From the NCBI GenBank assembly GCA_024742305.1, contig JANSYQ010000018.1, positions 1 through 64,000 on the forward strand: a stretch of DNA of 64,000 nucleotides, written 5' to 3'. Within the stretch, counting starts at the first letter, position 1. Each line of letters starts with the position of its first letter. This document shows, in pieces, positions 1,062 to 39,202 of this stretch. Both the position numbers and the translations under genes were made by a program. Under the pieces are notes generated by a model. It ran no database searches and was not told the origin of the DNA. It was given only the letters and a program-made list of their open reading frames with translations. This DNA comes from a bacterium (GTDB taxonomy: Bacteria; Bacteroidota; Bacteroidia; Flavobacteriales_D; Crocinitomicaceae).

Positions 1062-1103
1062 AAAGCCCCCGCATCTCGACTCCGCTCGATGACCAGGGGC
1101 TTT
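1062..1103 (-). terminator. Rho-independent terminator, copy A of the conserved-core hairpin family
   Basis: Outer stem AAAGCCCC (1062-1069) pairs perfectly with GGGGCTTT (1096-1103). On the minus strand it is followed by a long T tract (complement of the A run at 1055-1064). The loop carries the core TCTCGACTCCGCTCGATGA seen in four other hairpins of this window. It lies just after the stop codon of the minus-strand gene ending at 1123. Confidence 0.85.
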
Positions 1104-1122
1104 GATTATCAGTAATCGTGAA

Positions 1123-2151
1123 CTACTTTTTCACGACCGTTTTAGTAACTGTTTGTCCTGCGTTGTTGATTGCCAACAAATACATTCCTGCGTTAAGATT
1201 GGAAATATCAATCGTTTGACCGTTTGAGATGTCAAGTGTGTTGATAATACGTCCGCTAGCATCCAAAAGCTGTGCAGTAGCAGATGCATCGAATTCTCCG
1301 AATACAGTAACCACATCATTTGCCGGGTTTGGAGCCACAGTGAAATCAAATGATTCCAGCTCCTCAACTCCTACAAAAATTCCGTCTTCTTGAGACAAAA
1401 CCAAAGAAGTCTCTGTAATTGGTGTTGTTCCACCTTGGGGCAAAATTGTGATTGTCAAGTGAACGAATACAGGCAAGTTTGAGTTCGCGTAGTCGTAGTA
1501 CTCGTACTGACTTTTAATTACGTCAACGGCACCTACCAAAGGAAGTGTCGTTTGTGCGTTCTCCTCGCTGTAGTAACGAATAACGTTTGAAAGTGAAACG
1601 CTGTTTGGAAGCAAAAGTGTTCCTGATCCGTCAACAGAAGCGTCGATAGTTCCTGTCAACGATTCGTTAACTGGGAAACCATTGAAAGTCATAGACAAAG
1701 ATCCGTCGTAGTTATCGTTTACAGTTGCGCCTCCTTGGTCAAATGGGTACGTACACAAGATCGAAGGATCGTTTTCGTAAGTAACGATAATGTCTCCGAA
1801 AGTAGCTTCTGTGTAGTAGAACCCTTGCGACGTTCTCTCAGATGCAGTAGAGGAGAAGAACTGTTTGATGTCTCCTACTGAAAGCACTTTTGTTGCTCCA
1901 GGGAAGTTCGCTCCGTTCGGGTCAGCCGTTGGATCGATACATTCTACGTCTTGGGTTACACCGTTGTAACCTGCGATGGTAGAGTAGTCCCAAGTAACTC
2001 CAGCTCCAGTAGTTCCTGCGTAATTAGTTGCGAATGAATCCACTACGAAAAGCGTCGATGTCTCACCGATAGTAGGTTCGTTAGCCGACGTCATTTGCGC
2101 TTGCGAAAATGTAGCTGCTAATAGAAAAGTGAAGAGTAAAGGTTTTCTCAT
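1123..2151 (-). CDS. T9SS type A sorting-domain secreted protein
   Basis: The 342-residue protein has an N-terminal signal peptide (about residues 1-19, ending FSQAQ) and a C-terminal T9SS type A sorting domain (about 265-342). The sorting domain is recognised by the APNPANDVV start, the LLDASGRII strand, the NLNAGMYLL turn and a basic TVVKK end. The ~240-residue middle is rich in Ser/Thr/Gly/Asp, looks beta-rich and has no enzyme motif I recognise; it may be a surface or adhesion protein. T9SS carries such proteins across the outer membrane and removes the C-terminal domain. A canonical promoter (2197-2168) precedes it and a strong terminator follows it, so it is a single-gene unit. Confidence 0.85.
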   Translation of the reverse strand: MRKPLLFTFLLAATFSQAQMTSANEPTIGETSTLFVVDSFATNYAGTTGAGVTWDYSTIAGYNGVTQDVECIDPTADPNGANFPGATKVLSVGDIKQFFSSTASERTSQGFYYTEATFGDIIVTYENDPSILCTYPFDQGGATVNDNYDGSLSMTFNGFPVNESLTGTIDASVDGSGTLLLPNSVSLSNVIRYYSEENAQTTLPLVGAVDVIKSQYEYYDYANSNLPVFVHLTITILPQGGTTPITETSLVLSQEDGIFVGVEELESFDFTVAPNPANDVVTVFGEFDASATAQLLDASGRIINTLDISNGQTIDISNLNAGMYLLAINNAGQTVTKTVVKK

Positions 2152-2167
2152 AATTTTTGATTTTCTC

Positions 2168-2197
2168 CAAAAGTAAAAAATTGCGACATTTCTTCAA
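2168..2197 (-). promoter_or_regulatory. Bacteroidota promoter (TTG-N19-TACTTTTG)
   Basis: Read on the minus strand, TTG (2197-2195) is followed after 19 nt by TACTTTTG (2175-2168), matching the Bacteroidota -33/-7 consensus. The ATG of the T9SS gene (2151) follows 16 nt later. Its position argues that the plus-strand gene on the right does not begin at the ATG at 2157. Confidence 0.75.
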
Positions 2198-2237
2198 TGT
2201 CCCCCATCATTGTATGCCGCCGTTTAAACAAAGGGGT

Positions 2238-2245
2238 TATCTTTG
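2238..2245 (+). promoter_or_regulatory. Candidate -7 box TATCTTTG for the RND transporter
   Basis: TATCTTTG matches TAnnTTTG and lies 19 nt before the preferred TTG start at 2265. No clear TTG lies at the ideal upstream spacing, so the promoter is only half supported. Confidence 0.45.
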
Positions 2246-2264
2246 TGCCTCAAACGAAACAGAA

Positions 2265-4544
2265 TTGAAGAAGGTTGGCGAAAAGTGGTTTAAAAGATAC
2301 TCAGTAATAGCCGTTTGCGCATTATTTGTCTCTCTTCTGTTCTTTCTCTACTACGCCGCTCAGATAGAGTTTGACTACGATTTCGAGAAATTTTATCCTA
2401 CGGATGACCCTGAAACTGAATTTTTTATTGACTACAGAGAAAAGTTTGAATCTGACAACGATTTCTTGCTTATTGCGATAGAAAATGAAGGAGGAATATA
2501 CGATTTGGATTTTCTGAAAAAAGTAGATGCCCTTACGAATGACTTAAAAAATGCAAAGTATGTGAAGAACGTACTTTCTATTACGCAACAGAAGGAATAC
2601 TTTATCATTGGCGGTGTTACCGATGAAAAGCCGTACATCAATTTTGAAGATGTCGATTTAAAAAGAGATTCGGCCAACATTAGCACAAAAGACGAGTTGG
2701 TAAACAATCTTGTTGCCAAGGATGGAAAATCGGTTTGTCTCTTTGTTCGCCACAAAGACTTTTTATCGAAGAAGGGGAGCGATGTTCTGATTACGAATAT
2801 TGAGCGAAAGGCAAAATCGTATGGTTTTAATGACTTGCGCATAGGAGGTCGAGCGATAGGACAGAAATATTATATCGATAAGATGTCCTTTGAGATGATA
2901 CTATTCCTGAGCCTGAGCGCCGTTTTGGTGGTTATCTTTCTATTGGTAGCCTTTAAGTCTATTTGGGGAATAATGATTCCGCAGGCGGTAATCGTTGCGG
3001 GAATGATTTGGCTGGTAGGAGGTATGTCTCTTGCGAATCAGCCGATGAACATTATTCTTACGGTTCTTCCATCTGTCATGTTTGTCGTCTCCATGTCTGA
3101 CGTCATTCATTTGGTTTCCCGATACCTAGATGCGCTTCGTGAGTTAGAGAATTCCTTTGAAGCAACAAAAGTAGCAGTACGTGAAGTTGGATTGGCGACA
3201 TTGCTTACCTCCATCACCACAGCCATTGGGTTCTTCTCCTTGATTTTTGTTCGTGTGGAACCGATTCAAGTTTTCGGTACCGTCATGGGAATTGGTGTGA
3301 TGATTGCCTTCATTCTCACTTTTGCGGTACTTCCTGCCTTGTTTTATTTGACCGGAGGACCGAAATACATCACAGCAAAAAAGAAGGATCACTTTTGGCG
3401 CCGTCGATTGGAAAAATGGTTCCTGCTCGTTGGTAGAAACAAGAAAACCATTCTTGGTGCAGGCGTTGTCGTTTTGGTATTGAGTGTTGTTGGAATTATG
3501 CAGTTGGAGAGCGACAACATGCTCATGGATGATATTTCGGAAGGCGAACCTTTGAAACAAGATTTCAATTATCTGGATGATCATTACGGCGGAGCTCGTC
3601 CGTTTGAAATGGCGGTTACCATTCGAGACACAAATGTTCGAGTTTGGGACCAAGAAGTACTAAAGACGATTGATACCGTTGAGAATTATCTTACTAATTC
3701 CTACGGCGTAAACATCAAAATGTCAGTTGTAACTGCAATGAAGGTACTCAATAGAGGAATGAACTTGGGTAAGGATGAGGCCTACAAACTTCCTGAACGC
3801 AATAGCAAAAGACGTAGTATTCGAAGAGCTCTGCGCGTTGCTGGGGAGGGGCAATTCGTTCGAACAATGTTGGATAGTACAGAAACGATACTTCGTATTA
3901 GTGGTACCATTCCCGATTTAGGAAACAAGAAGGTCACGGCGTTAAATGAGAAGCTGGAAAAGTTCCTAAAAGGAAAAACAATGGGCGGTAAACTTGATTA
4001 TCAAGTAACGGGAACGGCACATTTGGTCGATAAAAACCTTCGTTATATGTCTACCAGCTTGGTAAAGGGATTGGCGGTTTCTATTTTAATTGTAGCGCTA
4101 ATTATGGGCTTGATTTACCGATCGTTTAGCATGATGTTGATCAGTTTGGTGCCAAATATCTTCCCACTGGTATTCATCGGTGGAGCGATGGGCTTCCTTG
4201 GTGTAGATCTCAAAATATCTACGGCCATTATCTTTACTATCGCCTTCGGAATTGCGGTTGATGATACCATACACTTGTTGGGCAAATTCAAGTACGAATT
4301 GATGAAAGGCAAGGGCGTTGTGTATGCTTTGCGCAGAAGTTATTTCACCACTGGAAAGGCAATGATTCTCACGACATTAATTCTATGTTCTGGATTCTTG
4401 TTGTTGGTGTTCTCTAGCTTCCTAGGAACCTTCTATTTGGGAATCATGTTGTGTCTCGCACTGATTGTAGCATTGATCGCAGATTTAACCATTTTGCCTG
4501 TTCTTATCCTCCTTTTCTACAAGCCGAAGAAAAAAGAGTCTTAA
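2265..4544 (+). CDS. RND/MMPL-family transporter
   Basis: A large integral membrane protein of the resistance-nodulation-division superfamily (MMPL/HpnN-type). Counted from the TTG start, there is one TM helix near residues 13-31, a large periplasmic loop, five TM helices (about 205-360), a second helix and loop, and five more (about 620-750), i.e. the duplicated RND layout. The hallmark GIAVDDTIHLLGKF lies in the second half and a matching MSDVIHLVSRY in the first. RND proteins of this type use the proton gradient to export lipids or other hydrophobic molecules. An in-frame ATG at 2157 would add 36 residues, but those overlap the divergent promoter and look non-coding. I prefer TTG at 2265, 19 nt after a TATCTTTG box. 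Substrate unknown. Confidence 0.8.
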   Translation: MKKVGEKWFKRYSVIAVCALFVSLLFFLYYAAQIEFDYDFEKFYPTDDPETEFFIDYREKFESDNDFLLIAIENEGGIYDLDFLKKVDALTNDLKNAKYVKNVLSITQQKEYFIIGGVTDEKPYINFEDVDLKRDSANISTKDELVNNLVAKDGKSVCLFVRHKDFLSKKGSDVLITNIERKAKSYGFNDLRIGGRAIGQKYYIDKMSFEMILFLSLSAVLVVIFLLVAFKSIWGIMIPQAVIVAGMIWLVGGMSLANQPMNIILTVLPSVMFVVSMSDVIHLVSRYLDALRELENSFEATKVAVREVGLATLLTSITTAIGFFSLIFVRVEPIQVFGTVMGIGVMIAFILTFAVLPALFYLTGGPKYITAKKKDHFWRRRLEKWFLLVGRNKKTILGAGVVVLVLSVVGIMQLESDNMLMDDISEGEPLKQDFNYLDDHYGGARPFEMAVTIRDTNVRVWDQEVLKTIDTVENYLTNSYGVNIKMSVVTAMKVLNRGMNLGKDEAYKLPERNSKRRSIRRALRVAGEGQFVRTMLDSTETILRISGTIPDLGNKKVTALNEKLEKFLKGKTMGGKLDYQVTGTAHLVDKNLRYMSTSLVKGLAVSILIVALIMGLIYRSFSMMLISLVPNIFPLVFIGGAMGFLGVDLKISTAIIFTIAFGIAVDDTIHLLGKFKYELMKGKGVVYALRRSYFTTGKAMILTTLILCSGFLLLVFSSFLGTFYLGIMLCLALIVALIADLTILPVLILLFYKPKKKES

Positions 4545-4549
4545 ATCAT

Positions 4550-4557
4550 TATTTTTG
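4550..4557 (+). promoter_or_regulatory. Candidate -7 box TATTTTTG before nhaC
   Basis: TATTTTTG matches TAnnTTTG and ends 21 nt before the nhaC ATG, overlapping the region just after the RND stop. There is no clear -33 TTG. It suggests nhaC can be transcribed separately from the RND gene. Confidence 0.45.
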
Positions 4558-4578
4558 AACCACTTCAAATACTAAACC

Positions 4579-6078
4579 ATGGCCAAAGATTCTAAGAAAA
4601 AGTTAAGTACAATACAAATGTTCTTACTGGCTCTAATTCCTGTTTTAATCCTCATTGGCCTTCTTGCTTTGAGTGTCTATCTCTACGGTGATGATAGTTT
4701 GAGTGGCGCGAATCAAATGGCACTTATTGTCGGTGCAATTATCGCCGGCCTTGTTGGATGGCGATTGGGGTTCTCTTGGAAAGATATTGAAAAAGGAATG
4801 GTGAAGAGTATTAAGTCCGCTTTACCAGCCATTTTAATTCTCTTAATGATTGGCGCGCTTTCTGGAGCTTGGTTGATTTCAGGAATTGTTCCCACTATGA
4901 TATACTACGGATTAGAGATTTTAAATCCCACCATCTTCTTATTTGCCGCTTGCATCATCAGTGCTATCGTTGCAGTGGCCACAGGAAGCTCTTGGAGTAC
5001 CGTTGCTACTGTTGGTGTGGCGTTAATTGGTATTGGAGGTGCCTTGGGAATAGATCCAGCAATGTCTGCAGGAGCGATTATCTCAGGAGCGTATTTCGGG
5101 GATAAAATGTCGCCGCTTTCAGATACCACTAACCTAGCACCGGCGATGGCAGGAACTGATCTGTTCACTCATATTCGCTATATGGCGCTTACGACAATAC
5201 CATCCATTGTAATCACTTTGATCATTTTTCTAATTATTGGTTTCTCTCTTTCAACCAATAATTCTGAAATGGGAGCTTTGGAAATGGGCAAATTAATTAA
5301 AGAAAATTTTGTTATTTCCCCATGGTTTTTACTAATTCCAGCGCTAGTTGTATTTCTAATTATTAAAAAAGTTCCCTCGCTTCCTGCTTTATTTATTGGT
5401 ACAATTACGGGGTGTTTGGTGGCAGTGTTTTTTCAACCAGATATTGTCCAAGATCTTGGAGCGGCTCACAATGAAATGGATGGTAAAGAGATCACATGGT
5501 CTCCGAACTATGTGCAATCTTCGTACATAGCTTCCATAGATGCAATGACAGGATATATTGCAATTGAGACGGAAAATGCTGGTGTTAACAAATTGTTGTC
5601 GTCAGGAGGAATGTACGGCATGCTTAACACCATTTGGTTGATTGTGTGTGCGATGTGTTTCGGAGGGATTATGGAGGCTTGCGGATTACTTCAAGCGATT
5701 ACTAAAATGCTTATGCGACTGGTACGCTCAACAGGGTCGTTGATCGCCACAACCACAGGAACATGTCTGTTTTTCAATACAACTGCATCCGATCAGTACC
5801 TATCCATTGTTGTTCCGGGAAGAATGTTTGCAGATGCATATAAAGACCGTGGTTTGGCTCCTCAAAATTTGTCTCGAACCTTGGAAGATTCGGGTACAGT
5901 TACATCTGTTTTAATTCCATGGAATACATGTGGAGCAACACAATCAAAAGTGTTAGGAGTAGCTACTGGTGACTACTTTATCTATTGCTTCTTCAACATC
6001 ATCAGTCCGATTATGACCATGGTATTTGGTTATGTAGGTATCAAGATTGCCAAGTTGAAGCCTAAAAAGAAGGATTAG
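4579..6078 (+). CDS. nhaC: Na+/H+ antiporter, NhaC family
   Basis: The 499-residue polytopic membrane protein has about eleven hydrophobic segments. The central signature TGSSWSTVATVGVALIGIG, followed shortly by SGAYFGDKMSPLSDTTNLAP (both around residues 135-190), is characteristic of the NhaC family. These antiporters exchange cytoplasmic Na+ for external protons and support pH and sodium homeostasis, as expected for a bacterium living in salt water. The second half repeats the pattern with FNTTASDQYLSIVVPGRMF. The start ATG (ATGGCCAAAG) is followed by a short lysine-rich cytoplasmic leader, and the protein also ends in lysines (KPKKKD). It lies 34 nt after the RND gene and may share its transcript. 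Confidence 0.9.
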   Translation: MAKDSKKKLSTIQMFLLALIPVLILIGLLALSVYLYGDDSLSGANQMALIVGAIIAGLVGWRLGFSWKDIEKGMVKSIKSALPAILILLMIGALSGAWLISGIVPTMIYYGLEILNPTIFLFAACIISAIVAVATGSSWSTVATVGVALIGIGGALGIDPAMSAGAIISGAYFGDKMSPLSDTTNLAPAMAGTDLFTHIRYMALTTIPSIVITLIIFLIIGFSLSTNNSEMGALEMGKLIKENFVISPWFLLIPALVVFLIIKKVPSLPALFIGTITGCLVAVFFQPDIVQDLGAAHNEMDGKEITWSPNYVQSSYIASIDAMTGYIAIETENAGVNKLLSSGGMYGMLNTIWLIVCAMCFGGIMEACGLLQAITKMLMRLVRSTGSLIATTTGTCLFFNTTASDQYLSIVVPGRMFADAYKDRGLAPQNLSRTLEDSGTVTSVLIPWNTCGATQSKVLGVATGDYFIYCFFNIISPIMTMVFGYVGIKIAKLKPKKKD

Positions 6079-6115
6079 ATCCTCACGGATAGTCTTTATT
6101 CCACTGTCTTTTTGT

Positions 6116-6123
6116 TAATTTTG
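6116..6123 (+). promoter_or_regulatory. -7 box TAATTTTG before ffh
   Basis: TAATTTTG matches TAnnTTTG and ends 22 nt before the ffh ATG. The -33 element is not obvious. Confidence 0.5.
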
Positions 6124-6145
6124 TAGTCCTGAAATTGAAAAAATT

Positions 6146-10495: not shown

Positions 10496-10508
10496 TTTAA
10501 TAATTCCT

Positions 10509-25134: not shown

Positions 25135-25153
25135 TTGAGTGTTCATACATTGA

Positions 25154-25184
25154 AGAATGCGGCTTTCGGGTCGCATTTTTTTTG
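25154..25184 (+). terminator. Intrinsic terminator of fabI
   Basis: AATGCG (25156-25161) pairs with CGCATT (25172-25177), followed by a run of eight T. It lies 20 nt after the fabI stop. Confidence 0.8.
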
Positions 25185-29870: not shown

Positions 29871-30150
29871 AGTTTGAGCGTGAGTTTTGAAGAAAAGAAA
29901 AAGCGCGATTTCTGATGAAACCCTTGATTTTCATCAAAAGACAGAACTATTTCATGGACTGATCAACGCAAGCTAGCCCAAAGAAGGTATTGTCAACCCC
30001 TTGATTTGACCTTTCAAATCGGACTTAAGAATTCTTCTTTTATCACTCTCACATATCACACTCAATTCTGAAAGAAAAGCTGATATAGAGATAGTTTCGA
30101 GTTTGAGTGTGAGTTTTGAAGAAAAAGAAAAAGCGCAATTTCTAATGAAA
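29871..30150. repeat. ~50-nt imperfect direct repeat flanking 180 bp beside tRNA-Met
   Basis: The sequence at 29871-29920 recurs at 30100-30150 with about four substitutions and one inserted A. Each copy begins AGTTTGAG(C/T)GTGAG and ends in a (G/A)ATTTCT(G/A)ATGAAA half-stem. The right copy contributes the left arm of the tRNA terminator; in the left copy that hairpin is broken, and a different hairpin (TGATGAAA/TTTCATCA) follows. The 354-bp gap 29815-30168 has no other gene. Confidence 0.7.
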
Positions 30151-30160
30151 TTGCGCTTTT
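30129..30160 (-). terminator. Terminator of tRNA-Met
   Basis: A perfect 14-bp stem AAAAGCGCAATTTC (30129-30142)/GAAATTGCGCTTTT (30147-30160) with a 4-nt loop TAAT. In the tRNA (minus) direction it is followed by TTTTTCTTTTTCTTC. Confidence 0.9.
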
Positions 30161-30168
30161 CTTTTAAG

Positions 30169-30242
30169 TAGCGAGACCGAGAGTTGAACTCGGGACCTCA
30201 GGGTTATGAATCCTGCGCTCTAACCAACTGAGCTATCTCGCC
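30169..30242 (-). tRNA. tRNA-Met (anticodon CAT)
   Basis: On the minus strand the 74-nt sequence folds as a cloverleaf: acceptor GGCGAGA/TCTCGCT, D arm GCTC AGTTGGTTA GAGC, anticodon loop TTCATAA with CAT, T arm CCGAG TTCAACT CTCGG and discriminator A. CCA is not encoded. The first acceptor pair is G-U. CAT could also be a lysidine-modified tRNA-Ile2, but the D arm and loop suit elongator Met. It has a canonical promoter and strong terminator of its own. Confidence 0.9.
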
Positions 30243-30275
30243 ATGTGTACCTAACATTTTGGTTAAATGCGGGTG

Positions 30276-30305
30276 CAAATATAATAGGAATTTTACTTTG
30301 TACAA
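30276..30305 (-). promoter_or_regulatory. Promoter of tRNA-Met (TTG-N19-TATATTTG)
   Basis: On the minus strand TTG (30305-30303) precedes TATATTTG (30283-30276) by exactly 19 nt; the mature tRNA begins 33 nt further on. Confidence 0.75.
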
Positions 30306-30338
30306 GAATTCTCTTGCTTAAAAATAGATTCCCAAATG

Positions 30339-32051
30339 TTACTTTAAGGCATCTAACTCAGACTGAACAAATGACGCTAATGAAGTAATGTTGGCTTCCG
30401 TAAAGTCAAACTTGACACCTGCTTCCGCATAAATCTCTGGAATGGAGCGTGTATAGCCCAATTTTAAAGCGTTTTTATACTGCTGAATGGCCTTCGGTTT
30501 ATCTTCCAAACTGTTCTTCCAAACCCCTAATGCACCCAACTGGGCAATTCCATATTCGATATAGTAAAACGGTACTTCGAAAATGTGTAATTGACGCTGC
30601 CATGAGGTACGCTGCAAGTCTTGGTAACCCGACCAATCTGTTAATCCCGTCCCGTATTGCTTGGAAAGCTCCACCCAGTAACTATGACGTTCTTCCGCAG
30701 AGTGTTGGTGGTTTTCGTACAACCAATGCTGGAATTCATCCACCTGGGCAATCCAAGGAAGTAAACGAAGTATCGTTTCTAGCTGTTCCTTTTTCGCACG
30801 GTTTAAATCGTCCTCATTGGAGTAAAACTCTTGCCATTGGTCCATTGTCAGTAATTCCATGGACATCGATGCCAGCTCTGCCACCTCCGACGGAAGGCTT
30901 TTGAATCCAGTGATTTCCAATTCACGACTGAGGAAGGAATGAACAGCATGTCCGCCTTCATGAACCATCGTAACCAAATCTCGATGCGAGCCAACGGCAT
31001 TCATAAAAATGAACGGGACTCCAATTTCGTAAAGTGGGTAATTGTAGCCGCCTGGTGATTTTCCATCTTTCGACTCTAGATCAAGATGTCCCATTTCAGA
31101 CATCGTGGCGAGACAATCTCCGAAATACGGATCTACGCGATTGAACATTGCGATGCTTCCTGAAAGCAATTCAGCTCCCGTTTTGAAGGGTTTTAATGGA
31201 AGTTTTCCTTCTGGGTCAACATCTAGGTCCCACGGTTTGAATTTGTCTTTTCCGAGTTTGCTCAAACGCTCTTGCTGAATCTGTCGAACAATAGGAACAA
31301 TGGTAGATTTCACAGATTGATGAAAATCGCGACAGTCTTGAACGGAGTAATCGAATCGCCCCATTGCTTGAAGTTTGTAGTCGCGGAAATTCTCAAATCC
31401 TGCATTCAGCGCTACTTGGTGACGTTTCTTGAGTAAGGAGTCGAAAAGTGCATCGAACTTATCGAAATCTTCTCTTCGGCGCGCGCCCATCTTTTCAAAG
31501 ACATCCTTTCGAATGGCTTCGTCCGTTTCCTTTAGGTAGAGTGCAGCCTTTTGCATTGTTATATTTTCACCTTCATGTTCAATGGATTGAGCCGCAGACA
31601 ATGCACCAAATTTCTGACTTTCCTCCGCTAACTCTGCTTGAATCGGAATATTTTCCTCTCGGTACAAATTCAGAGCATTTTCAATACTTCTGAAAAGAAT
31701 GGCGTAGGCTGGGTCAGACTTCAGGTCCTCCGTAAATGGACTTGCCGTTAATTTGCGATTTAATTGATCTTCAAGCGGCGCCAGCTTCGGTTGAATTTCC
31801 GTGACAAAAAATGTGTAATCCTTGCTTAAGGTCTCATCTTTCGTATTTATGGTCATCTTGATGTAGCGCCAAGCCATATCTTCCTCTAGAATTGCCTCTA
31901 ATTCACTGATGTCTTTTAACCATGCCTCGAATTCCGACTTTTCCGAAATGTCTCGTTCCAGAAGATTGGTGTAGTACTTTTCAATTTTCTCCCATGCATC
32001 AATCACTAAGTCAGATGCAACGAATGTTCTTTTTGGTTTGGTAATTTTCAT
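30339..32051 (-). CDS. M3 family oligoendopeptidase
   Basis: A 570-residue cytoplasmic zinc metallopeptidase of the M3/PepF family that degrades short peptides. The zinc motif HEGGHAVHSF (HEXXH at 364-368) and the downstream Glu ligand in SLPSEVAELASMSMELL are both present. The late segment PFYYIEYGIAQLGALGVWKN is typical of PepF. No signal peptide. Length is normal. It lies 3' of a DUF5606 gene, from which it is separated by terminator copy E, so it is probably transcribed on its own. Confidence 0.92.
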   Translation of the reverse strand: MKITKPKRTFVASDLVIDAWEKIEKYYTNLLERDISEKSEFEAWLKDISELEAILEEDMAWRYIKMTINTKDETLSKDYTFFVTEIQPKLAPLEDQLNRKLTASPFTEDLKSDPAYAILFRSIENALNLYREENIPIQAELAEESQKFGALSAAQSIEHEGENITMQKAALYLKETDEAIRKDVFEKMGARRREDFDKFDALFDSLLKKRHQVALNAGFENFRDYKLQAMGRFDYSVQDCRDFHQSVKSTIVPIVRQIQQERLSKLGKDKFKPWDLDVDPEGKLPLKPFKTGAELLSGSIAMFNRVDPYFGDCLATMSEMGHLDLESKDGKSPGGYNYPLYEIGVPFIFMNAVGSHRDLVTMVHEGGHAVHSFLSRELEITGFKSLPSEVAELASMSMELLTMDQWQEFYSNEDDLNRAKKEQLETILRLLPWIAQVDEFQHWLYENHQHSAEERHSYWVELSKQYGTGLTDWSGYQDLQRTSWQRQLHIFEVPFYYIEYGIAQLGALGVWKNSLEDKPKAIQQYKNALKLGYTRSIPEIYAEAGVKFDFTEANITSLASFVQSELDALK

Positions 32052-32061
32052 AGCACAAAAA

Positions 32062-32095
32062 AACCGATCATCGAGCGGAATCGAGTTGATCGGTT
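32062..32095 (-). terminator. Terminator of DUF5606 gene, copy E of the conserved-core hairpin family
   Basis: Outer stem AACCGATCA (32062-32070)/TGATCGGTT (32087-32095), with a T7 run after it on the minus strand. The loop read on the minus strand (ACTCGATTCCGCTCGA) matches the shared core. Located between the DUF5606 stop (32130) and the M3 start (32051). Confidence 0.82.
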
Positions 32096-32129
32096 GTATT
32101 TTTTAATTATTTCAATTTTGTCTTTCGAC

Positions 32130-32600
32130 TTATTCTTCTTCGTCAGCGGTAACCTCTGCTGTTTCTTCTGAACTTGCCGAAGTGTCCATTTGGCTTTCTT
32201 CCGCCTCATTTTCGGGTGTCGCTTCTAGCGCTCCAGCCTTCAATAGCAAGTTGTACCATTGGAACAATTTTTTGATGTCTGAGGCATACACGCGCTCTTC
32301 GTCGTAATCCGGTAAAATTTCCGTAAAGTAATCAGTTAGCTCACCAATGTCTGACTTATGAGAAGGACCTTCTTTCCCTTGTTGTTTTTCATAAATGTCC
32401 GCGAAGATTTCCTTCAACGGCTTGTCGTCATCAATGGTGTAGATACTGATGTCCTCTAGCGCAGAAACGCGATCTGATGAATACGCTGGAAATCGCTTTT
32501 TGTCAATCAAAGATTCAACAATAATACTATTCTTCCCCTGCGCAATTACTTTGTAAAGTCCCGGTCTTCCCGATATAGATATGATTCCAGATAAATCCAT
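32130..32600 (-). CDS. DUF5606 family protein
   Basis: A 156-residue protein with the family opening LSGIISISGRPGLYKVIAQG, followed by NSIIVESLIDKKRFPAYSSDRVSALEDISIYT (small SH3-like barrel), then helices and a very acidic C-terminal tail (residues ~133-156, EEETAEVTADEEE-like). The family is restricted to Bacteroidota and has no known function. The fold suggests nucleic-acid or protein binding, as inference only. A TATTTTTG box (32626-32619) lies 18 nt upstream of the start. Confidence 0.82.
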   Translation of the reverse strand: MDLSGIISISGRPGLYKVIAQGKNSIIVESLIDKKRFPAYSSDRVSALEDISIYTIDDDKPLKEIFADIYEKQQGKEGPSHKSDIGELTDYFTEILPDYDEERVYASDIKKLFQWYNLLLKAGALEATPENEAEESQMDTSASSEETAEVTADEEE

Positions 32601-32667
32601 GTTCTCAAATTAAAGTGCCAAAAATACAAATTTCATTGTGCAAAGCAGTATCTGAAGCAACCTTCCC

Positions 32668-34983
32668 TTATAATTTTACAAATCGTGCAGAAGCCGTTCC
32701 CGAAGCTGTGGTGATATTCAAAATGTAGCTTCCTGACTGCATGTTAGTTACATCAATTTGATTTCCGGAAAGGTTTATGTCGATGCTTCTTCCATTCAAG
32801 TCGATACACTCTACTTCCAAAATTTCTTCATCAGAAACAATCTGAATTGATGCTGACGTTGGGTTTGGATAAACGTTGAATGATTTGATGCCAATTTCTG
32901 CTAAGGAAAGACTAACGGCATAAGGTGCAGACAAGGCAAAACATCCGTCATCGTTGACGGTCATTACTTGATAGTTACCATCAGACTGATAGGTAATAAT
33001 TTGATTTGTTTCTCCATTTACTGCAACACCATCGATATACCATTGATAGTTGGTCGCAGTGGACGATTCTAACCCTGTTCCAATATAATTTACTGTTGGA
33101 GTTGGTTCCAAAGTTTGTGATGATAGCATTGCCAAAGCGTCCACTTTTCCGAAGCCGTATTCAAAGTTGGGAACGGTACCCGTGTATTGATCTGTATACG
33201 ATGTAGCGTGCAAATCTGTGAGGAAGTTGGCGTAGTCTGCCATCCCACAACGTTCAAGGTAAAGTGCCGCGATTCCGGCAACCACCGGAGAAGCCATAGA
33301 TGTCCCTCCATTTCTTGCATGCCAGCCAGCAGAATCCACAACGGACCAGTAGGCAGGATTTTGCAATACCCACAATGGAGCAGCTGTTACCGAATTGTCT
33401 CCGGCAGCAATCACGTCCGGTTTCATGATTCCATGTCTAGAAGGTCCACGACTCGAATTTTGACTTCGTTCTTGCGCATCTACACCTGTAATAGGGTAAG
33501 TAACATAGTTTCTGTCGGTAAAGGTCCATCGGTTCTTCATATTCGCTACCGAAACAATTTTCTCAGAGCAGTTCCACGATGACACCAAGGTTTGTAGTGA
33601 ATCGGGCATTACGTAGTTCACAATATCCGGCAACTCAACTGCTGTTGGAATGTTGGTGACCATATCGTTCAATTGCAACCATTCACCCGACCATAGATCG
33701 TATTTCCCTGAACCCGTCGTTTCAAAACGGAACAAATAGTCCGTAGAATCTACTTCGACTACCGCTTGCAAATGGAACAAGCCGGTAATTATTTCTGTAT
33801 AAAAAGTGACCGTTCCAATTTGATTGCTTCCATTCCAAATCGTATCGGTGATTGTGTTGTTTCCTACCGTCGCAGCATCGTAGAAATTGGTACGACCACT
33901 AAAGGTGTAATTCGGTGCAGGAGCATTAGCACCCATCGCGAATTCGTAGGTAGCATCACCAGTGTCCGACCAAAGATCAAAGAATACAGTGTTGGGACCA
34001 ATTTGAGACGAAGGATTATTCAAGAACCACACAAAGCTTGTGTCGGGACCGATATTCGCATTTTGATTGTGATAATACCCCTGAGCTCCGGAGTTCCCCA
34101 TGGCGCCGACTATAATTCTTCCGGGTTTTTCATCAATTAACGCTTCCATCATTTCTGATGCTGGATCGCTTCCATCGTGACTTCCTAAATATGTTCCTAA
34201 ACTCAAGTTGACAACGGCAGGCATGTTGTATTCATCCGCGATTTGGAAAATGTAGTCTACGGCATCGGCAATAGTTAATGTCCAGTTGGGTAGATTAAAA
34301 TTCGTTTCAACAATCACCAAATTGGCGTCTGGTGCCATTCCGATGTTTAATCCGTTAGCATTTCCATTACCTACCGCTTGTCCTGCCACGGTAGACCCAT
34401 GTGCAGAGGCTTCCTCGGTACTTGTACACGTTCCATTATTGATCGCAGTGCTGTCCCATTCGTAGCCGTAGCCAAATCCTGCGGGAGAATTACCATTTAC
34501 GGAGTGATCCCAGTAACGGAGTACACGCGTATTTCCATTGTCATCAATAAAATCAGGGTGAAGCCAATCAATACCTTGGTCAACTACACCAATAATCACA
34601 TCTTGTCCGGTGTAAGCTGTATTTAAAGGAGCGGCACCCAAATGGACATCATCAACATTGTGGTGCAATCTTGCTGTATCTCCCAAGGCTGTTGGCGGAG
34701 CAAACTCGAAGTAGAAATTCTCCAAGGTTCCATCCAGTTTGTGATCATAAATCCACTGTGGAGTAGTTGTAATAAACAGCCAATTGTCCGTTTGGAATTT
34801 TACATGAATCGCTTCTTTCTCTAAAAGCTGTTCGTGTTGTAAAGAATTGGGTACACAGAACACGGTTGGGGCATCAGGTGCCTCTTTTAGGACCTTATCG
34901 AATCCAAATTTTTGTGCGTTACCCATTGTGGGAAAAAGTAGTAGTAGAAGGATCAATAGACCTCCTGTTGTAATGTTCGCCAT
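32668..34983 (-). CDS. Secreted S8 subtilase with T9SS type A sorting domain
   Basis: A 771-residue extracellular serine protease. Signal peptide 1-23 (ending GNAQ), propeptide to ~115, then the subtilisin domain with the catalytic triad D135 (VVDQGIDWLHPDF), H195 (AHGSTVAGQ) and S562 (GGTSMASP). A beta-rich insertion of ~170 residues sits between the oxyanion-hole region and the serine. A PKD/Ig-like linker (YQWYIDGVAVNGETNQI) and type A sorting domain (about 703-771, NVYPNPTSASIQIV, NMQSGSYILNI) close the protein. It probably degrades external protein for nutrition. Confidence 0.92.
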   Translation of the reverse strand: MANITTGGLLILLLLLFPTMGNAQKFGFDKVLKEAPDAPTVFCVPNSLQHEQLLEKEAIHVKFQTDNWLFITTTPQWIYDHKLDGTLENFYFEFAPPTALGDTARLHHNVDDVHLGAAPLNTAYTGQDVIIGVVDQGIDWLHPDFIDDNGNTRVLRYWDHSVNGNSPAGFGYGYEWDSTAINNGTCTSTEEASAHGSTVAGQAVGNGNANGLNIGMAPDANLVIVETNFNLPNWTLTIADAVDYIFQIADEYNMPAVVNLSLGTYLGSHDGSDPASEMMEALIDEKPGRIIVGAMGNSGAQGYYHNQNANIGPDTSFVWFLNNPSSQIGPNTVFFDLWSDTGDATYEFAMGANAPAPNYTFSGRTNFYDAATVGNNTITDTIWNGSNQIGTVTFYTEIITGLFHLQAVVEVDSTDYLFRFETTGSGKYDLWSGEWLQLNDMVTNIPTAVELPDIVNYVMPDSLQTLVSSWNCSEKIVSVANMKNRWTFTDRNYVTYPITGVDAQERSQNSSRGPSRHGIMKPDVIAAGDNSVTAAPLWVLQNPAYWSVVDSAGWHARNGGTSMASPVVAGIAALYLERCGMADYANFLTDLHATSYTDQYTGTVPNFEYGFGKVDALAMLSSQTLEPTPTVNYIGTGLESSTATNYQWYIDGVAVNGETNQIITYQSDGNYQVMTVNDDGCFALSAPYAVSLSLAEIGIKSFNVYPNPTSASIQIVSDEEILEVECIDLNGRSIDINLSGNQIDVTNMQSGSYILNITTASGTASARFVKL

Positions 34984-35101
34984 TTGTCAGGATTTTATAC
35001 CATATAGACGTAAATATACGCCGAATGGTTAATTTTTCAGAGTCAAAGTAGAGAATAGTTCTATTTTTACGCTGCAATCATTTTTTCTAAACACTATTAA
35101 A

Positions 35102-36616
35102 ATGAACAAAACTATTATCAGATTATCTCTTGCGGTTTTTGCTTTGGGTATCACAAATGTGATGTACGCGCAAACGAAAGAGGAGAAGAAAGCGGCGAAA
35201 GCTGAAGAAAAGCGTCTTAAAGAAATTCCTAACTGGTACAACGGTAAAGGACCGGGAATGAACACGGAAAAGGCGTACAAAATGTTGAAAAACCGCAACT
35301 CAGAGACGGTAGTGGTTGCGATCATCGACTCAGGTGTAGATATTGAGCACGAGGATTTGCAAGGACGCATTTGGGTAAACGAAGATGAAATTCCAGGAAA
35401 TGGAATTGACGACGACAACAATGGATACATTGATGATGTTCACGGATGGAACTTCCTTGGGAATGCCAACGGAGAAAATGCCAATGATATTCGTCTAGAA
35501 GTAACTCGAATTTTTGCGAAGCTCGATAAGAAATATGGAAAAATGCCAGTTTCTATCACAAACGAAGAAGAGCAAGCAGAGTACGATTTGTACTTGGAAG
35601 TAAAAGAGAAGGTAGAAACACAACGTGCTCAAGCACAACAAATTGTAACGATCATCAATCAACGAATGGGTGGGGCAACTGAAGAGCAAAAAGCGCAGTT
35701 GAAACCAGCGTTGGAGTACTATACCACACAAGCTGAGGTGTATTACAATCCTGATCATAATGGACGTGCAATTGTAGGTGATGATCCGGATGATTTTTCT
35801 GATACTAATTACGGAAACAACGATGTTGAAGGTCCTGATGCATTGCACGGAACACACGTTGGAGGAATTGTTGGAGCCGTTCGTGGAAACGAAGTTGGTT
35901 ACGATGGTGTTGCAAACGACGTTTTATTGATGTCGCTCCGTGCAGTACCAAACGGAGATGAGTTCGACAAAGATATCGCGTTGGCAATTCGCTACGCTGT
36001 AGATAATGGAGCGAAAGTGATTAACATGTCTTTTGGTAAGGCGTACTCTCCACATGCGAAAGAAGTATTTGAGGCATTTGAATACGCAGACTCTAAAGGA
36101 GTTTTATGTATCCACGCAGCAGGAAACGATCACAAAAACATCGACGAGGAACCTAACTTCCCAACTTCGATGTATGATTTCCAAATGAAGAAATTGGATC
36201 ACTTCTTGACTATTGGAGCAAGCACTCGTTACGTAAAAGACGACATGCTTCCTGCACCGTTCTCAAACTACGCTTCTTCAGGAGTTGACGTTTTTGCACC
36301 AGGAATGGAAATTTTGAACACTGTACCACAAAGTGAGTACCAAGAATTGCAAGGAACTTCAATGGCGTGTCCAATGGTAACTGGAGCAGCTGCATTCTTG
36401 AAGTCATACTTCCCGAATATGTCAATGAAAGATATTGCAGATGTATTATTGAAGTCAGCGACATCTTACCGTGGAGAGCTTCAGGTAAAACCTGGAGGAG
36501 GAAACAGTGACGAAGATTTGCAATCGGATATGGTAGATTTCGGAACTTTGTCAACTACAGGAGGAATCATCAATCTTGCGGAAGCAGTGAAGATGTGTCT
36601 TGAAATGGAAAAATAA
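35102..36616 (+). CDS. S8 subtilase without sorting domain
   Basis: A 504-residue serine protease with a signal peptide (1-24, ...NVMYAQ) and a charged coil (KEEKKAAKAEEKRLKE). Catalytic triad: D76 (AIIDSGVDIEHEDLQGR), H249 (LHGTHVGGIVGA) and S420 (QGTSMACP). Between D76 and H249 there is an extra ~120-residue helical, Glu/Gln-rich segment (about 130-210), which places it in the large Bacteroidota group of periplasmic subtilases. No T9SS domain and no pro-domain of the usual kind, so it likely acts in the periplasm or outer-membrane surface. It ends at terminator copy B. It is divergent from the secreted subtilase at 32668-34983. Confidence 0.9.
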   Translation: MNKTIIRLSLAVFALGITNVMYAQTKEEKKAAKAEEKRLKEIPNWYNGKGPGMNTEKAYKMLKNRNSETVVVAIIDSGVDIEHEDLQGRIWVNEDEIPGNGIDDDNNGYIDDVHGWNFLGNANGENANDIRLEVTRIFAKLDKKYGKMPVSITNEEEQAEYDLYLEVKEKVETQRAQAQQIVTIINQRMGGATEEQKAQLKPALEYYTTQAEVYYNPDHNGRAIVGDDPDDFSDTNYGNNDVEGPDALHGTHVGGIVGAVRGNEVGYDGVANDVLLMSLRAVPNGDEFDKDIALAIRYAVDNGAKVINMSFGKAYSPHAKEVFEAFEYADSKGVLCIHAAGNDHKNIDEEPNFPTSMYDFQMKKLDHFLTIGASTRYVKDDMLPAPFSNYASSGVDVFAPGMEILNTVPQSEYQELQGTSMACPMVTGAAAFLKSYFPNMSMKDIADVLLKSATSYRGELQVKPGGGNSDEDLQSDMVDFGTLSTTGGIINLAEAVKMCLEMEK

Positions 36617-36638
36617 TGATTGTAACATATTAGATTTC

Positions 36639-36680
36639 AAAATCCCGGCATCTCGACTCCGTTCGATGATCCGGGATTTT
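36639..36680 (+). terminator. Terminator of the S8 subtilase, copy B of the conserved-core hairpin family
   Basis: Outer stem AAAATCCCGG (36639-36648)/CCGGGATTTT (36671-36680) with following T run. Loop carries TCTCGACTCCGTTCGATGA, the shared core. The next ATG (36689) follows only 8 nt later. Confidence 0.87.
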
Positions 36681-36688
36681 TTTTGCCT

Positions 36689-37165
36689 ATGAAAAATATA
36701 TTGATACTGTTGGTTGCCACGATTCCCATTATGGCAATGACATCCAAGCCGGATCCGAAAGATGCATTGGATCAAATGATAGATGATTGGCACGTAGCAG
36801 CTGCACAAGGAGACTTTGAAGGATATTTTGGGGTCACTACGGAAGAATTTGTCTTTTTAGGAACTGCGCCGGAAGAGCGTTGGACGCAAGAAGAATTCAT
36901 GAGTTTTTGTAAACCGTATTTCGACCGTGGAAAAGCATGGGACTTCAAGCCTTCCAATAGGAATTGGTCGTTTTCAAAAAATGGTAAAACCGCATGGTTC
37001 GATGAAGACCTAGATACTTGGATGCGCGGTTGTCGTGGCACGGGAATCGTTCAAAAGATCAAGGGCGAGTGGAAAATTGTATACTACAACCTCCATGTGT
37101 TAATCGAAAATGAGAAAATTGACGCCTTTATTGAATTGCGGGATGCGCCGTTCGAGGAGGAGTAA
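36689..37165 (+). CDS. NTF2/SnoaL-like domain protein, exported
   Basis: The start is the ATG at 36689, giving 158 residues; an in-frame TTG two codons earlier is less likely. The N-terminus is a short signal (MKNILILLVATIPIMAMTS). The rest is a SnoaL_3/DUF4440-type alpha+beta fold: DALDQMIDDWHVAAAQGDFEGYF, EEFVFLGTAPEERWTQEEFM, then WSFSKNGKTAWFDEDLDTWM and GIVQKIKGEWKIVYYNLHVLI. These domains bind small molecules; no function is assigned. It begins directly after terminator copy B, with almost no room for a separate promoter. Confidence 0.8.
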   Translation: MKNILILLVATIPIMAMTSKPDPKDALDQMIDDWHVAAAQGDFEGYFGVTTEEFVFLGTAPEERWTQEEFMSFCKPYFDRGKAWDFKPSNRNWSFSKNGKTAWFDEDLDTWMRGCRGTGIVQKIKGEWKIVYYNLHVLIENEKIDAFIELRDAPFEEE

Positions 37166-37173
37166 ATAATTTT

Positions 37174-37238
37174 GAATAATGAATAATGCTCCTTCGCCGA
37201 AGCTACGGCGCAGGCGCGGAATAATGAATAAGGAATAA
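37174..37238. repeat. GAATAATGA tract with GC-rich hairpin element
   Basis: The gap between 37166 and 37288 contains GAATAATGAATAATG and GAATAATGAATAAGGAATAA flanking a GC-rich insert whose CCTTCGCCG (37191-37199) pairs with CGGCGCAGG (37206-37214) around AAGCTA. This AT-repeat/GC-hairpin combination is foreign-looking relative to its surroundings. Resembling GC-rich hairpin words are seen in many bacterial genomes, but I cannot name a family with certainty. Confidence 0.6.
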
Positions 37239-37241
37239 CGG

Positions 37242-37295
37242 TTACTGAGCAACGAGGTCATCGAGCTTGTCGAGATGCCGAAATACTCTCAGTAA
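37242..37295 (-). terminator. Hairpin copy D of the conserved-core family, overlapping a stop codon
   Basis: On the minus strand TTACTGAG (37295-37288) pairs with CTCAGTAA (37249-37242). The loop carries GCATCTCGACAAGCTCGATG, the shared core. The TGA stop of the gene at 37289 is inside the stem. The T tract after it is weak, so termination efficiency is uncertain. Confidence 0.65.
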
Positions 37296-39031
37296 GTAAC
37301 ATGAACAAAGCCTGAAGTTTCGATATCTTCTTGCTCTTCGAAGTCAACATAGATGCGATAGAAGTACACGCCTTCGCTGACCGGATTTCCCTGAGTATCT
37401 TTTCCATCCCATTCTTCGGTTGGGTCCTCTGACCGAAATACCACATTGCCCCAGCGATTGACAATTACATTTTCATAGCGTGCATTACAAAGGGTAGTGA
37501 AGGGTAGCGCATCGTTTACCATATCGCCATTTGGCGTAAATATGTTACCCACATTTATGTCACAATATTCCACAACTTCAGGATCAGGGGGCGTTGGTGG
37601 AGTATTCTCGAAGCAAACATCGGAGAACTTCATCGTGAATATATCTTTACCACTCGTAGCTGCAATCGCATCTCCATTGAAAGTCATGGAACCATCAAAA
37701 TAACCATTCACCCAAAGGTTACAATTATCATCTACCGTGATTCCTTGACCGCGATCGTAACTAGGTCCGCCACCTTCCTGTACCCATCGCCAAATACCGT
37801 TTCCATCTATTGCAGCAACAAAAACCTGGACACTGTCGCCATTAGAGTCGAATTCGTAAATTCCAAAATCAGCCTTACCACTGTATTGTCCAGTGACGAA
37901 AATGTTGCCGTCACTATTGGAGGTAATGTAGTTTCCTCGGTCTTTTCCTTTCTTTGATCCTGCACGTCTCGCCCAAATCCATTCGCCATTCTTAGAGATT
38001 TTAGCAACGAAAATGTCTCGTCCCTTTGGTCCGCCTGCGCTATCCAAAAATGAGCTGCCAAAGTAAGTAGTGTCACGAAATTCTCCCGTTACGTACATGA
38101 ACCCATCGTGACCGTCGACTATTCCGTTGGCACGATCGCTGAGTGGTCCCTTGGCATCTTGCACCCAAAGAAAATTTCCATCATTGTCATATTTTACCAC
38201 GTAAATGTCTGTTCCTCCCTGACTTGTGAGTGTTTCGGTGCCAAAATTTTGTGTATCGACATAGCCGCCAGCCACGTAAACATTGCCTTCTTCATCGACC
38301 GTGACAGCATTATCACGTTGCGCATAAATTCCTCCGAACGTTTCTACCCATTGCCAATTTCCCTGATCGTCCATTTTTGCAACAAATGCTAGTGAGTCGC
38401 CAGGAGCAAGGTTCAGAACAATATTGTCAAATGTAGCCACTCCCGGTTGATCTCCCGGATGTGAAACAAATCCGGTTACAAAAACATTGTTATTCGCATC
38501 AACGGCCAAGTCCTGACCGTGATCATCGCGGTATGGATAACCGCCTTCGTCGTTACCCGCATTTTTCATCCAAAGCGGATTGCCGTTTGGGTCAATTTTG
38601 GTTACGAAAATTTGATCGGTGTATCCCGTGGCGTTATAGACATTGAGTGGAGGCCAATCCAATCCACCCCAGCAGGTTCCAGTGACATACGTGTTGCCAT
38701 TACCGTCAATTGTTAGTCCCAAACCTCGATCATCGAAAAAGTTGGTGCCGTGCGTTTCCCACAGGAAGTTCCCTTGTGGATCAAGCTTAGCTACAAAAGC
38801 TTCTTTACTTTGAGTGTACGAGAAACCAGTATTATGTGGTCCAAAATTCGCTTCCTCATTATAGTACCCGGTGATGTAAGCGTTTCCTTCTGCATCATGC
38901 ACCACCTTGGTCCCTTTGTCAGACTTCAATCCACCACTTGCCACTATCCATTCGAAGTTCTGTCCGAAGGAGGTTGTAGCAATTGCCACGAAAAGAAACG
39001 TTGAAAAGAAGTTGTACAAAAGTTTTAGCAT
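37289..39031 (-). CDS. SBBP-repeat protein with gliding-motility (T9SS type B) C-terminal domain
   Basis: A 580-residue exported protein (signal 1-23, ...ATTSFGQ). Residues ~30-470 contain repeated NG/DG-NxxVTG-type blades (DAEGNAYITGYY, DGNGNTYVTG, DANNNVFVTGFV, DEEGNVYVAGGY), an SBBP beta-propeller. Residues ~487-580 are the type B sorting domain: CDINVGNIFTPNGDMVNDAL, YENVIVNRWGNVVF, WDGKDTQGNPVSEGVYFYRI. Type B cargo is anchored or released via PorP/SprF-type helpers. Likely a surface adhesin or filament component. Confidence 0.88.
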   Translation of the reverse strand: MLKLLYNFFSTFLFVAIATTSFGQNFEWIVASGGLKSDKGTKVVHDAEGNAYITGYYNEEANFGPHNTGFSYTQSKEAFVAKLDPQGNFLWETHGTNFFDDRGLGLTIDGNGNTYVTGTCWGGLDWPPLNVYNATGYTDQIFVTKIDPNGNPLWMKNAGNDEGGYPYRDDHGQDLAVDANNNVFVTGFVSHPGDQPGVATFDNIVLNLAPGDSLAFVAKMDDQGNWQWVETFGGIYAQRDNAVTVDEEGNVYVAGGYVDTQNFGTETLTSQGGTDIYVVKYDNDGNFLWVQDAKGPLSDRANGIVDGHDGFMYVTGEFRDTTYFGSSFLDSAGGPKGRDIFVAKISKNGEWIWARRAGSKKGKDRGNYITSNSDGNIFVTGQYSGKADFGIYEFDSNGDSVQVFVAAIDGNGIWRWVQEGGGPSYDRGQGITVDDNCNLWVNGYFDGSMTFNGDAIAATSGKDIFTMKFSDVCFENTPPTPPDPEVVEYCDINVGNIFTPNGDMVNDALPFTTLCNARYENVIVNRWGNVVFRSEDPTEEWDGKDTQGNPVSEGVYFYRIYVDFEEQEDIETSGFVHVTY

Positions 39032-39156
39032 GTTTCCTGATTGTTAATGAAACATTAAGACAATTTAAAGAAACAACTACTTATTTACAATTTCTGGGGT
39101 AATGGAGTCAACCGTATTATTGGAGTGCTAAGATGTAGCTCTTGTTGATTTCAATG

Positions 39157-39202
39157 AAAAAGCCCCTGCTTCTCGACTACGTTCGATGACCAGGGGCTTT
39201 TC
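39157..39202 (-). terminator. Terminator of pyrG-yidC, copy C of the conserved-core hairpin family
   Basis: Outer stem AAAAGCCCCTG (39158-39168)/CAGGGGCTTTT (39191-39201), followed on the minus strand by T5. Loop TTCTCGACTACGTTCGATGA carries the shared core. It lies 20 nt beyond the yidC stop. Confidence 0.87.

What the first reader, a model, noticed from the sequence alone, without database searches (positions are those of the whole stretch)
1062..39202. Five hairpin terminators share one core but have different compensating outer stems
Hairpins at 1062-1103, 32062-32095, 36639-36680, 37242-37295 and 39157-39202 all carry a core close to TCTCGACTCCGCTCGATGA, in either orientation relative to the transcript. 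Each copy has its own outer stem (AAAGCCCC/GGGGCTTT; AACCGATCA/TGATCGGTT; AAAATCCCGG/CCGGGATTTT; TTACTGAG/CTCAGTAA; AAAAGCCCCTG/CAGGGGCTTTT), so pairing is kept while sequence changes. All lie just after stop codons. That points to a repeated, probably once-mobile palindromic unit adopted as a terminator, or to a conserved loop recognised by a protein.
Basis: partly seen in the sequence, partly recalled or inferred. Interest (0 to 1): 0.72.

Follow-up and report, generated by a model that had tools for sequence, protein, structure and literature searches.

The report
Palindromic repeats nested in terminator loops
A tiny hairpin-forming DNA repeat sits inside the loops of many gene-ending signals in this bacterium, and in sister species the same signals often hold a different version of it, or hold it the other way round, so the repeat seems to turn over while the signal itself is inherited.

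Summary
Partly confirmed. All five window copies exist; four are intrinsic terminators, the fifth (37242-37295) has no T-tail and another loop subtype. The genome holds at least 134 model matches at E<=1. In a sample of 97 copies a pairing outer stem surrounds 25 of 44 copies with the six-base loop (mostly CTNCGC) but only 4 of 53 with the five-base loop (mostly CAAGC/CAGGC). The unit is a 20-25 nt imperfect hairpin with a conserved two-base bulge. No Y1 (RAYT-type) transposase is detectable in the genome. In 18 terminators compared with two sister species, outer arms keep locus-specific similarity (0 of 1000 permutations) and cores do not (625 of 1000); where both species hold a recognisable core it is inverted in 4 of 9 and 4 of 11, and types differ between species. 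So the 'compensating stems' are separate inherited terminators, and the nested palindrome turns over inside them. How it moves is unknown. Closest known: GTAG and CGTC REPs, and uptake-sequence dialects in Neisseria terminators; each failed at least one membership test. New variant of a known kind.

The parts
1062..1103 (-). intrinsic terminator (AAAGCCCCTG/CGGGGGCTTT arms, T-tail on - strand) with nested class A core at about 1072-1094
   Evidence: 19 nt after the stop of ORF 1123-2151; in G021 the orthologous terminator holds a core in the opposite orientation
32062..32095 (-). intrinsic terminator with nested class A core (weakest copy)
   Evidence: (21.6 bits); in G018 the orthologous terminator holds a core in the opposite orientation, in G021 a diverged insert below the threshold
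36639..36680 (+). intrinsic terminator with nested class A core
   Evidence: near-identical arms in G021 and G018; shortened insert in G021, stem-variant core in G018
37242..37295 (.). class B copy (loop CAAGC) inside an 8-bp inverted repeat without T-tail; not a terminator of this kind
   Evidence: absent at the syntenic place in G021 and G018
39157..39202 (-). terminator after yidC with nested class A core
   Evidence: orthologs in G021 and G018 hold inserts of the same length, at or below the threshold
39222..41276 (-). yidC (60KD_IMP, YidC_periplas), gene upstream of the 39157 terminator
35102..36616 (+). subtilase (Peptidase_S8) gene upstream of the 36639 terminator
32130..32600 (-). DUF5606/DUF6852 gene upstream of the 32062 terminator
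1123..2151 (-). gene with Por_Secre_tail sorting domain upstream of the 1062 terminator
25153..25180 (+). core-free terminator (TTCG loop), core-free in G021 too: control
57048..57077 (+). core-free terminator (TTTA loop), core-free in G021 too: control

Best explanation
The core is a REP-like, non-autonomous palindromic repeat: an imperfect hairpin (variable 4-bp base, G-A/T-C top, loop of 5-6) with a conserved unpaired GA (TC on the other strand). In this lineage one subtype lies mainly in the loops of intrinsic terminators, where an extra hairpin does not break the outer stem and T-tail and is therefore tolerated. The terminators are inherited in place and their arms drift with compensation. 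Inside them the core turns over: it is inverted, shortened, lost, or of the type that prevails in that species. Shown: repeat nature, nesting, bulge, ancestry signal in arms but not in cores, opposite orientation at the same terminator. Inferred: that cores are exchanged by spread of copies within a genome (transposition by a HUH-like or other enzyme not encoded here, or strand switching or gene conversion between palindromes), and that termination is the function retained.
For: At least 134 matches in the genome; relatives range from 72 to none. Outer-stem excess: 29 of 97 copies at score >=6 against 3.6 when flanks are re-paired at random; class A 25 of 44, class B 4 of 53. 26 of 27 nested class A copies follow a stop codon within 300 nt. 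18 orthologous terminators, 17 with G021 and 17 with G018: arms at the same locus 5.64 against 4.17 permuted (0 of 1000); cores 8.38 against 8.50 (625 of 1000). Orientation differs in 4 of 9 (G021) and 4 of 11 (G018) terminators where both cores pass the threshold. Of the 9 recognisable G021 cores at these loci, which were not chosen on G021, 7 are of one other type; its pattern occurs 23 times in G021, 11 in G018, 5 in G020, 3 here, 0 in reversed controls. Chosen the other way, on that G021 type, 3 of 7 terminators with an own ortholog hold a core here, none of the G021 type: infB, frr, C40:165606. rseP: same arms with T-A to C-G; core intact, shortened, absent in three species. TC bulge in 93 of 97 copies (copies were found by a sequence profile, which leans that way). 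Basal stem: 34 two-sided cells against 8.4 shuffled on 28 rows chosen by hand as hairpins.
Against: Own loci were chosen on the own core, which inflates own-species similarity; between the two species not used for the choice (G021, G018) the within-species excess is not significant (242 of 2000; 139 of 2000 for long hairpins), G018 being mixed. Rapid divergence of a 22-nt core could erase locus similarity without any exchange. The G021 type was named from the same sequences, so the typing is partly circular. No empty site with a clean insertion boundary or target duplication was found; core-free orthologs could be losses. Whether the same loops are occupied in both species is unsettled: 5 of 8 against 1 of 9 by eye (Fisher two-sided 0.05), but 3 of 8 against 1 of 9 (0.29) if the two G021 inserts below the threshold are left out. 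Covariation: two of the five measures do not exceed shuffles (pairs with two-sided change 4 against 3.4; further pair types 8 against 8.8). The GA-bulge class is not the only frequent class. No mobilising enzyme was identified, and no 3' end was mapped.
Confidence: 0.65

Rival explanations
1. Old insertions plus local change only: cores were placed in the loops once in a common ancestor, then diverged by mutation and were inverted by strand switching within the palindrome. Because the arms are complementary, inverting the whole hairpin leaves them unchanged. No later spread between loci.
For: By eye, occupied loops coincide between own genome and G021 (5 of 8 against 1 of 9; not significant with the stricter threshold); inserts of equal length but diverged at yidC and W32062; shortened inserts at rseP, S8_W36639, thiolase and fabD in G021.
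Against: Own cores are near-uniform while most recognisable G021 cores at the same loci form another type, in both directions of choice; no locus-specific similarity of cores.
Confidence: 0.2
2. The core is a recognition sequence (uptake or DNA-binding-protein signal) kept uniform per species by selection, with terminators as a convenient place, as for DNA uptake sequences.
For: Species-specific types at orthologous terminators; both orientations; precedent of uptake-sequence dialects in terminators (PMC3630211, PMC1852404, passages).
Against: At least 134 matches in 4.1 Mb (a lower bound) where uptake sequences generally number 1,000 or more per genome (PMC1852404 passage); in uptake-sequence terminators two inverted copies make the stem, here one palindrome fills the loop.
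Confidence: 0.08
3. The nested hairpin is selected for termination or RNA stability, and its sequence similarity reflects convergent constraint.
For: Nested copies follow stop codons; the inner hairpin mostly retains pairing.
Against: Terminators with short loops follow yidC in several genus members (by eye, e.g. L283, L284, L286, L291, L297), and core-free terminators exist in the window. Pairing alone does not explain the conserved GA bulge and loop letters, nor class B copies, 49 of 53 of which lack a strong outer stem.
Confidence: 0.06

Closest known systems
REP elements with GTAG tag and TnpA_REP/RAYT (e.g. E. coli, Pseudomonas, Stenotrophomonas)
   Same: short imperfect palindromes, mostly after coding regions, many copies; a bulge inside the stem, in E. 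coli REPs important for TnpA_REP activity (PMC8266576, passages)
   Different: no GTAG end, no Y1 transposase match in the genome; nested in terminator loops
CGTC-tagged REPs (Di Nocera 2013, PMC3733652; abstract, passages, Results parts 1-3 of 4)
   Same: apparently no dedicated transposase; reported from Bacteroidetes, Spirochaetes and other phyla; the paper also tells of some REPs lying inside longer palindromes
   Different: tag most often GGT before the stem (53 of 97), 6-bp stem with 2-nt bulge instead of 8-9 bp, loop 5-6 instead of 4-5; the word terminator does not occur in that paper's main text
DNA uptake sequences in terminators and their dialects (Neisseriaceae, Pasteurellaceae; PMC3630211, PMC1852404, passages)
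   Same: species-specific repeat variants housed in intrinsic terminators
   Different: there two inverted copies form the stem and copies generally number 1,000 or more; here one self-complementary unit fills the loop
IS1272 stem-loop-replacing transposition (PMC5678879, passages)
   Same: mobile DNA that takes the place of an inverted repeat recognised by structure rather than sequence
   Different: a full insertion sequence with a transposase; here only a hairpin of 20-25 nt differs and the arms are kept

Membership tests
GTAG REP / RAYT system | GTAG tetranucleotide at one end of the hairpin | tested here: not met
   the three bases next to the basal stem read GGT in 53 of 97 copies, else GAT, GGA and others
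GTAG REP / RAYT system | cognate Y1 transposase (PF01797) in the genome, flanked by the repeat | tested here: not met
   0 matches in the genome, 99.86% complete; of 30 RAYT-like loci of relatives (L091-L120) one has a core, about 1.2 kb from the gene
GTAG REP / RAYT system | imperfect hairpin with conserved bulge (E. coli type) | tested here: met
   TC bulge in 93 of 97 copies
CGTC REP | CGTC/TGTC/CCTC tag | tested here: not met
   commonest reading is GGT before the stem, GGTC with the first stem base; similar, not the same
CGTC REP | 8-9 bp stem, loop of 4-5, short CCA-like tail | tested here: not met
   6-bp stem with a 2-nt bulge, loop 5-6
DNA uptake sequence in terminators | about 1,000 or more copies per genome | tested here: inconclusive
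   134 model matches, a lower bound because 150 of 1437 candidates were scored
DNA uptake sequence in terminators | inverted pair of the signal forms the terminator stem | tested here: not met
   a single palindromic unit lies inside an unrelated stem
DNA uptake sequence in terminators | promotes DNA uptake | not testable with these tools
   needs a transformation assay
Intrinsic terminator (the host structure) | GC-rich stem followed by a T-run after a stop codon, conserved between species | tested here: met
   3' ends not mapped

The most novel reading that the evidence does not exclude
Terminator loops are standing docks for palindromic DNA: an occupied loop tends to stay occupied, but the occupant is repeatedly overwritten, in either orientation, by the hairpin type currently spreading in that species, through structure-guided exchange (strand switching or replacement between palindromes) that needs no transposase of its own.
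Probability: 0.2. Interest if true: 0.78.

Novelty: new variant of a known kind. Interest (0 to 1): 0.57.

Why it matters
It offers a natural experiment on how REP-like repeats without a transposase spread and where they are tolerated: the arms of each terminator identify the site, the loop reports the repeat. It also suggests that pipelines which remove T-tailed hairpins before looking for REPs (RepRanger, PMC12306157, passages), or which cap the terminator loop at 13 nt (TransTermHP, PMC1852404), may miss or mis-sort such nested elements (inference; neither program was run here).

Tried and rejected
RAYT origin: no PF01797 match in the genome; of 30 fetched RAYT-like loci one has a core at about 1.2 kb (the GA-bulge shape in 20 of them, L101-L120: the same core in L109 and one other hairpin in L102).

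Rfam: one match in the window at gathering threshold, a tRNA. A simple terminator scan of 30000-42000 with loops up to 8 did not list the hairpins of that stretch. Letters of the core in print: six spellings gave one paper (an esterase paper, one occurrence of one 14-letter term), six spellings of a related repeat gave none; topic searches listed no paper on REP-like units in terminator loops by title or abstract start. Supplements and subscription papers were not searched.

In GC-rich genomes some exact matches may be chance. In other genus members nesting was seen by eye in copies of G014, G018, G019, G020, G021, G022 and G029, not in those of G023, nor in G050 of the same order.

Rows dropped: of 71 extracted copies 50 went into the model. 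Of 22 own loci outside the window with a candidate gene 15 were sent; the 7 left out had mostly T9SS-sorted, short or doubtful proteins. With 5 that makes 20; L267 gave no match and L273 had no equivalent hairpin in G021 or G018, leaving 18. In the unselected comparison of 172 genes 20 had a hairpin in both; I left out C40 53593, 57739 and 190872 as weak or non-orthologous, counted the convergent pair 38316/39315 once and added W32130: 17. Of 19 G021-type copies examined, 8 lie in terminators by eye; one had no match in the own genome, leaving 7, of which own holds a core in 3 (infB, frr, C40:165606) and none at fumC, hutU, proDH and L460. One search paired the L460 orthologs with the wrong gene (labelled POP) and took a wrong hairpin for proDH; one search mends both. 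W32062 falls in the 'other' class because its arms overlap the core.
Full report
What is there. The five hairpins are real. Four (1062, 32062, 36639, 39157) are intrinsic terminators placed 19-34 nt after a stop codon with a T-tail on the matching strand. The fifth (37242-37295) overlaps the stop of ORF 37289-39031, lacks a T-tail and has the loop CAAGC in place of CTCCGC. The weight-matrix scores of the five (30-46) are far from the next place in the window (13.6) and from shuffles (15.7 at most). Most window copies were part of the training alignment.

How common. In the own genome (4.09 Mb, 56 contigs, 99.86% complete) TCGASTNCGNTCGA occurs 34 times against 2 for the reversed pattern, TCGACAAGCTCGA 31 times against 0. 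The covariance model of 50 copies gives 134 matches at E<=1, a lower bound since 150 of 1437 candidates were scored; 71 of them were listed. Among 34 genomes of the genus, own included, 23 have a match at E<=1, several of them single weak ones; larger families are G018 72, G030 35, G020 30, G014 28, G023 18, G021 15, while 11 have none. G030 appears to be Crocinitomicaceae bacterium M30B20, because its contig C7 and JAGYIR010000011.1 have the same length, 767,451 bases; this places the genus by inference.

Anatomy. From 97 own copies collected by pattern and model (not a census), 44 fit the six-base loop class (A) and 53 the five-base class (B). Arms that pair around the core (score 6 or more) are found in 25 of 44 A and 4 of 53 B; the whole set has 29 against 3.6 when left and right flanks are re-paired at random. 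With the cut at 5.8 there are 27 nested A copies: 14 have arms flush with the core, 26 follow a stop codon within 300 nt, and both orientations to the gene occur. Read as GGT-CATC-GA-loop-TC-GA-GATG-CC, the core is a 6-bp hairpin with an unpaired GA; the bulge (TC on the other strand) is kept in 93 of 97 own copies. In the basal stem of the own copies 15 cells of 388 show two-sided change, 10 one-sided, 18 are broken, so support from the own genome alone is modest. On 28 distinct cores from three species, chosen by hand as hairpins and so leaning to pairing, 34 cells change on both sides against 8.4 in shuffles, and slid structures give 0-4; two of five measures do not exceed shuffles. In 264 kb of own sequence and 276 kb of G021 the class with a G-A/T-C pair and GA bulge counts 18 and 14 where the mean class has 3.3; A/T-rich classes reach the same height (18 in each), and about half of the 18 are cores.

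Orthologous terminators. G021 and G018 are the nearest relatives found (yidC 90% and 89%); the window and about 190 kb of contig C40 are collinear with G021. I compared 18 own core-bearing terminators with 17 orthologs each in G021 and G018. Arms: mean score at the same locus 5.64, permuted 4.17 with sd 0.19, 0 of 1000 as high. Cores, scored in the better orientation: 8.38 at the same locus, 8.50 permuted, 625 of 1000 as high. So arms carry ancestry and cores do not. With a threshold at the 99th percentile of shuffled cores, 18 of 18 own, 9 of 17 G021 and 11 of 17 G018 terminators hold a recognisable core; the others hold diverged, shortened or ordinary loops. Where both pass, orientation differs in 4 of 9 and 4 of 11. 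In G021, 7 of 9 belong to a type CACTGAGGTTCTCGAAGTG. I took that reference from these same sequences, so the typing is partly circular; the pattern count is a separate check: 23 in G021, 11 in G018, 5 in G020, 3 in the own genome, none in reversed controls. rseP shows one homologous stem with an intact core here, a shortened insert in G021 and an ordinary loop in G018, with a T-A to C-G change in the arm.

Choice in the other direction. Of 19 G021-type copies examined, 8 lie in terminators by eye. Seven have an own ortholog: a core of another type stands at infB, frr and C40:165606, none at fumC, hutU, proDH and L460. So loops that hold the G021 type there hold either the own kind or no core here.

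Limits of these tests. Own loci were picked on the own core. Swapping species labels within loci gives a strong within-species excess for own against G021 and own against G018 (0 of 2000), but not for G021 against G018 (242 of 2000; 139 of 2000 with long hairpins only). In an unselected set of 17 terminators present in both own genome and G021, 8 own terminators hold a core and, by eye, 5 of these do in G021; of 9 without, 1 does in G021 (Fisher two-sided 0.05). Two of those five (yidC, W32130) fall below the threshold; without them it is 3 of 8 against 1 of 9 and not significant (0.29).

Mechanism. The arms are complementary, so inverting an entire terminator palindrome leaves them as they were and flips only the core; strand switching inside a palindrome can do this without any enzyme of the repeat (general knowledge, not tested). 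A change of type at many loci needs more: spread by an enzyme acting on folded single strands, structure-dependent replacement as described for IS1272 (PMC5678879, passages), or template switching between terminators that share AAAAGCCCC-like arms. No PF01797 protein is detectable in the own genome, though 30 of the 60 genomes searched, own included, have one; of 30 fetched RAYT-like loci one has a core, at about 1.2 kb. I hold the two shown points (inherited arms, cores without locus memory) firmly and the route of spread loosely.

Comparison with the known. A bulged imperfect palindrome recalls E. coli REPs, whose bulge matters for TnpA_REP (PMC8266576, passages), but the tag and transposase tests fail. 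CGTC REPs also apparently lack a dedicated transposase and occur in Bacteroidetes (PMC3733652), but tag and stem differ. Uptake-sequence dialects in Neisseria terminators (PMC3630211, PMC1852404, passages) are the best parallel for species-specific variants inside terminators, with a different geometry. Searches listed no description of REP-like units in terminator loops that turn over between species; they cover open-licence main texts only.

Noticed in passing
L439:9712-9751 (own contig C40, about 89.7 kb): Another palindrome, CCCGATAGCTATCGGG, fills the loop of a conserved terminator; the G021 ortholog has similar arms and an 11-nt loop. A second, unrelated palindrome in a terminator loop.
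   Followed up: partly
window 37166-37288: In G021 and G018 the syntenic place of the class B copy holds an extra short reading frame (starting MKTTVEISNYPLNADYE, read by eye) that is absent here.
   Followed up: no
L036, L042, L050, L265: Several class B copies are flanked by partial tandem repeats of their own ends, e.g. CTCGGCATCTCGGCATC.
   Followed up: no
G021 loci: G021 shows a parallel split, by eye: its GGTT-loop type lies in terminators in 6 of 8 copies, its GGCT-loop type in 1 of 10.
   Followed up: partly
UASB270 loci among L126-L195: The core sits in a longer repeat, often followed by GGAACACCGCACGTCGAGC-like sequence, many times in this genome.
   Followed up: no
window 30128-30242: tRNA gene on the minus strand at 30169-30242 beside a long core-free hairpin at 30128-30161.
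   Followed up: no
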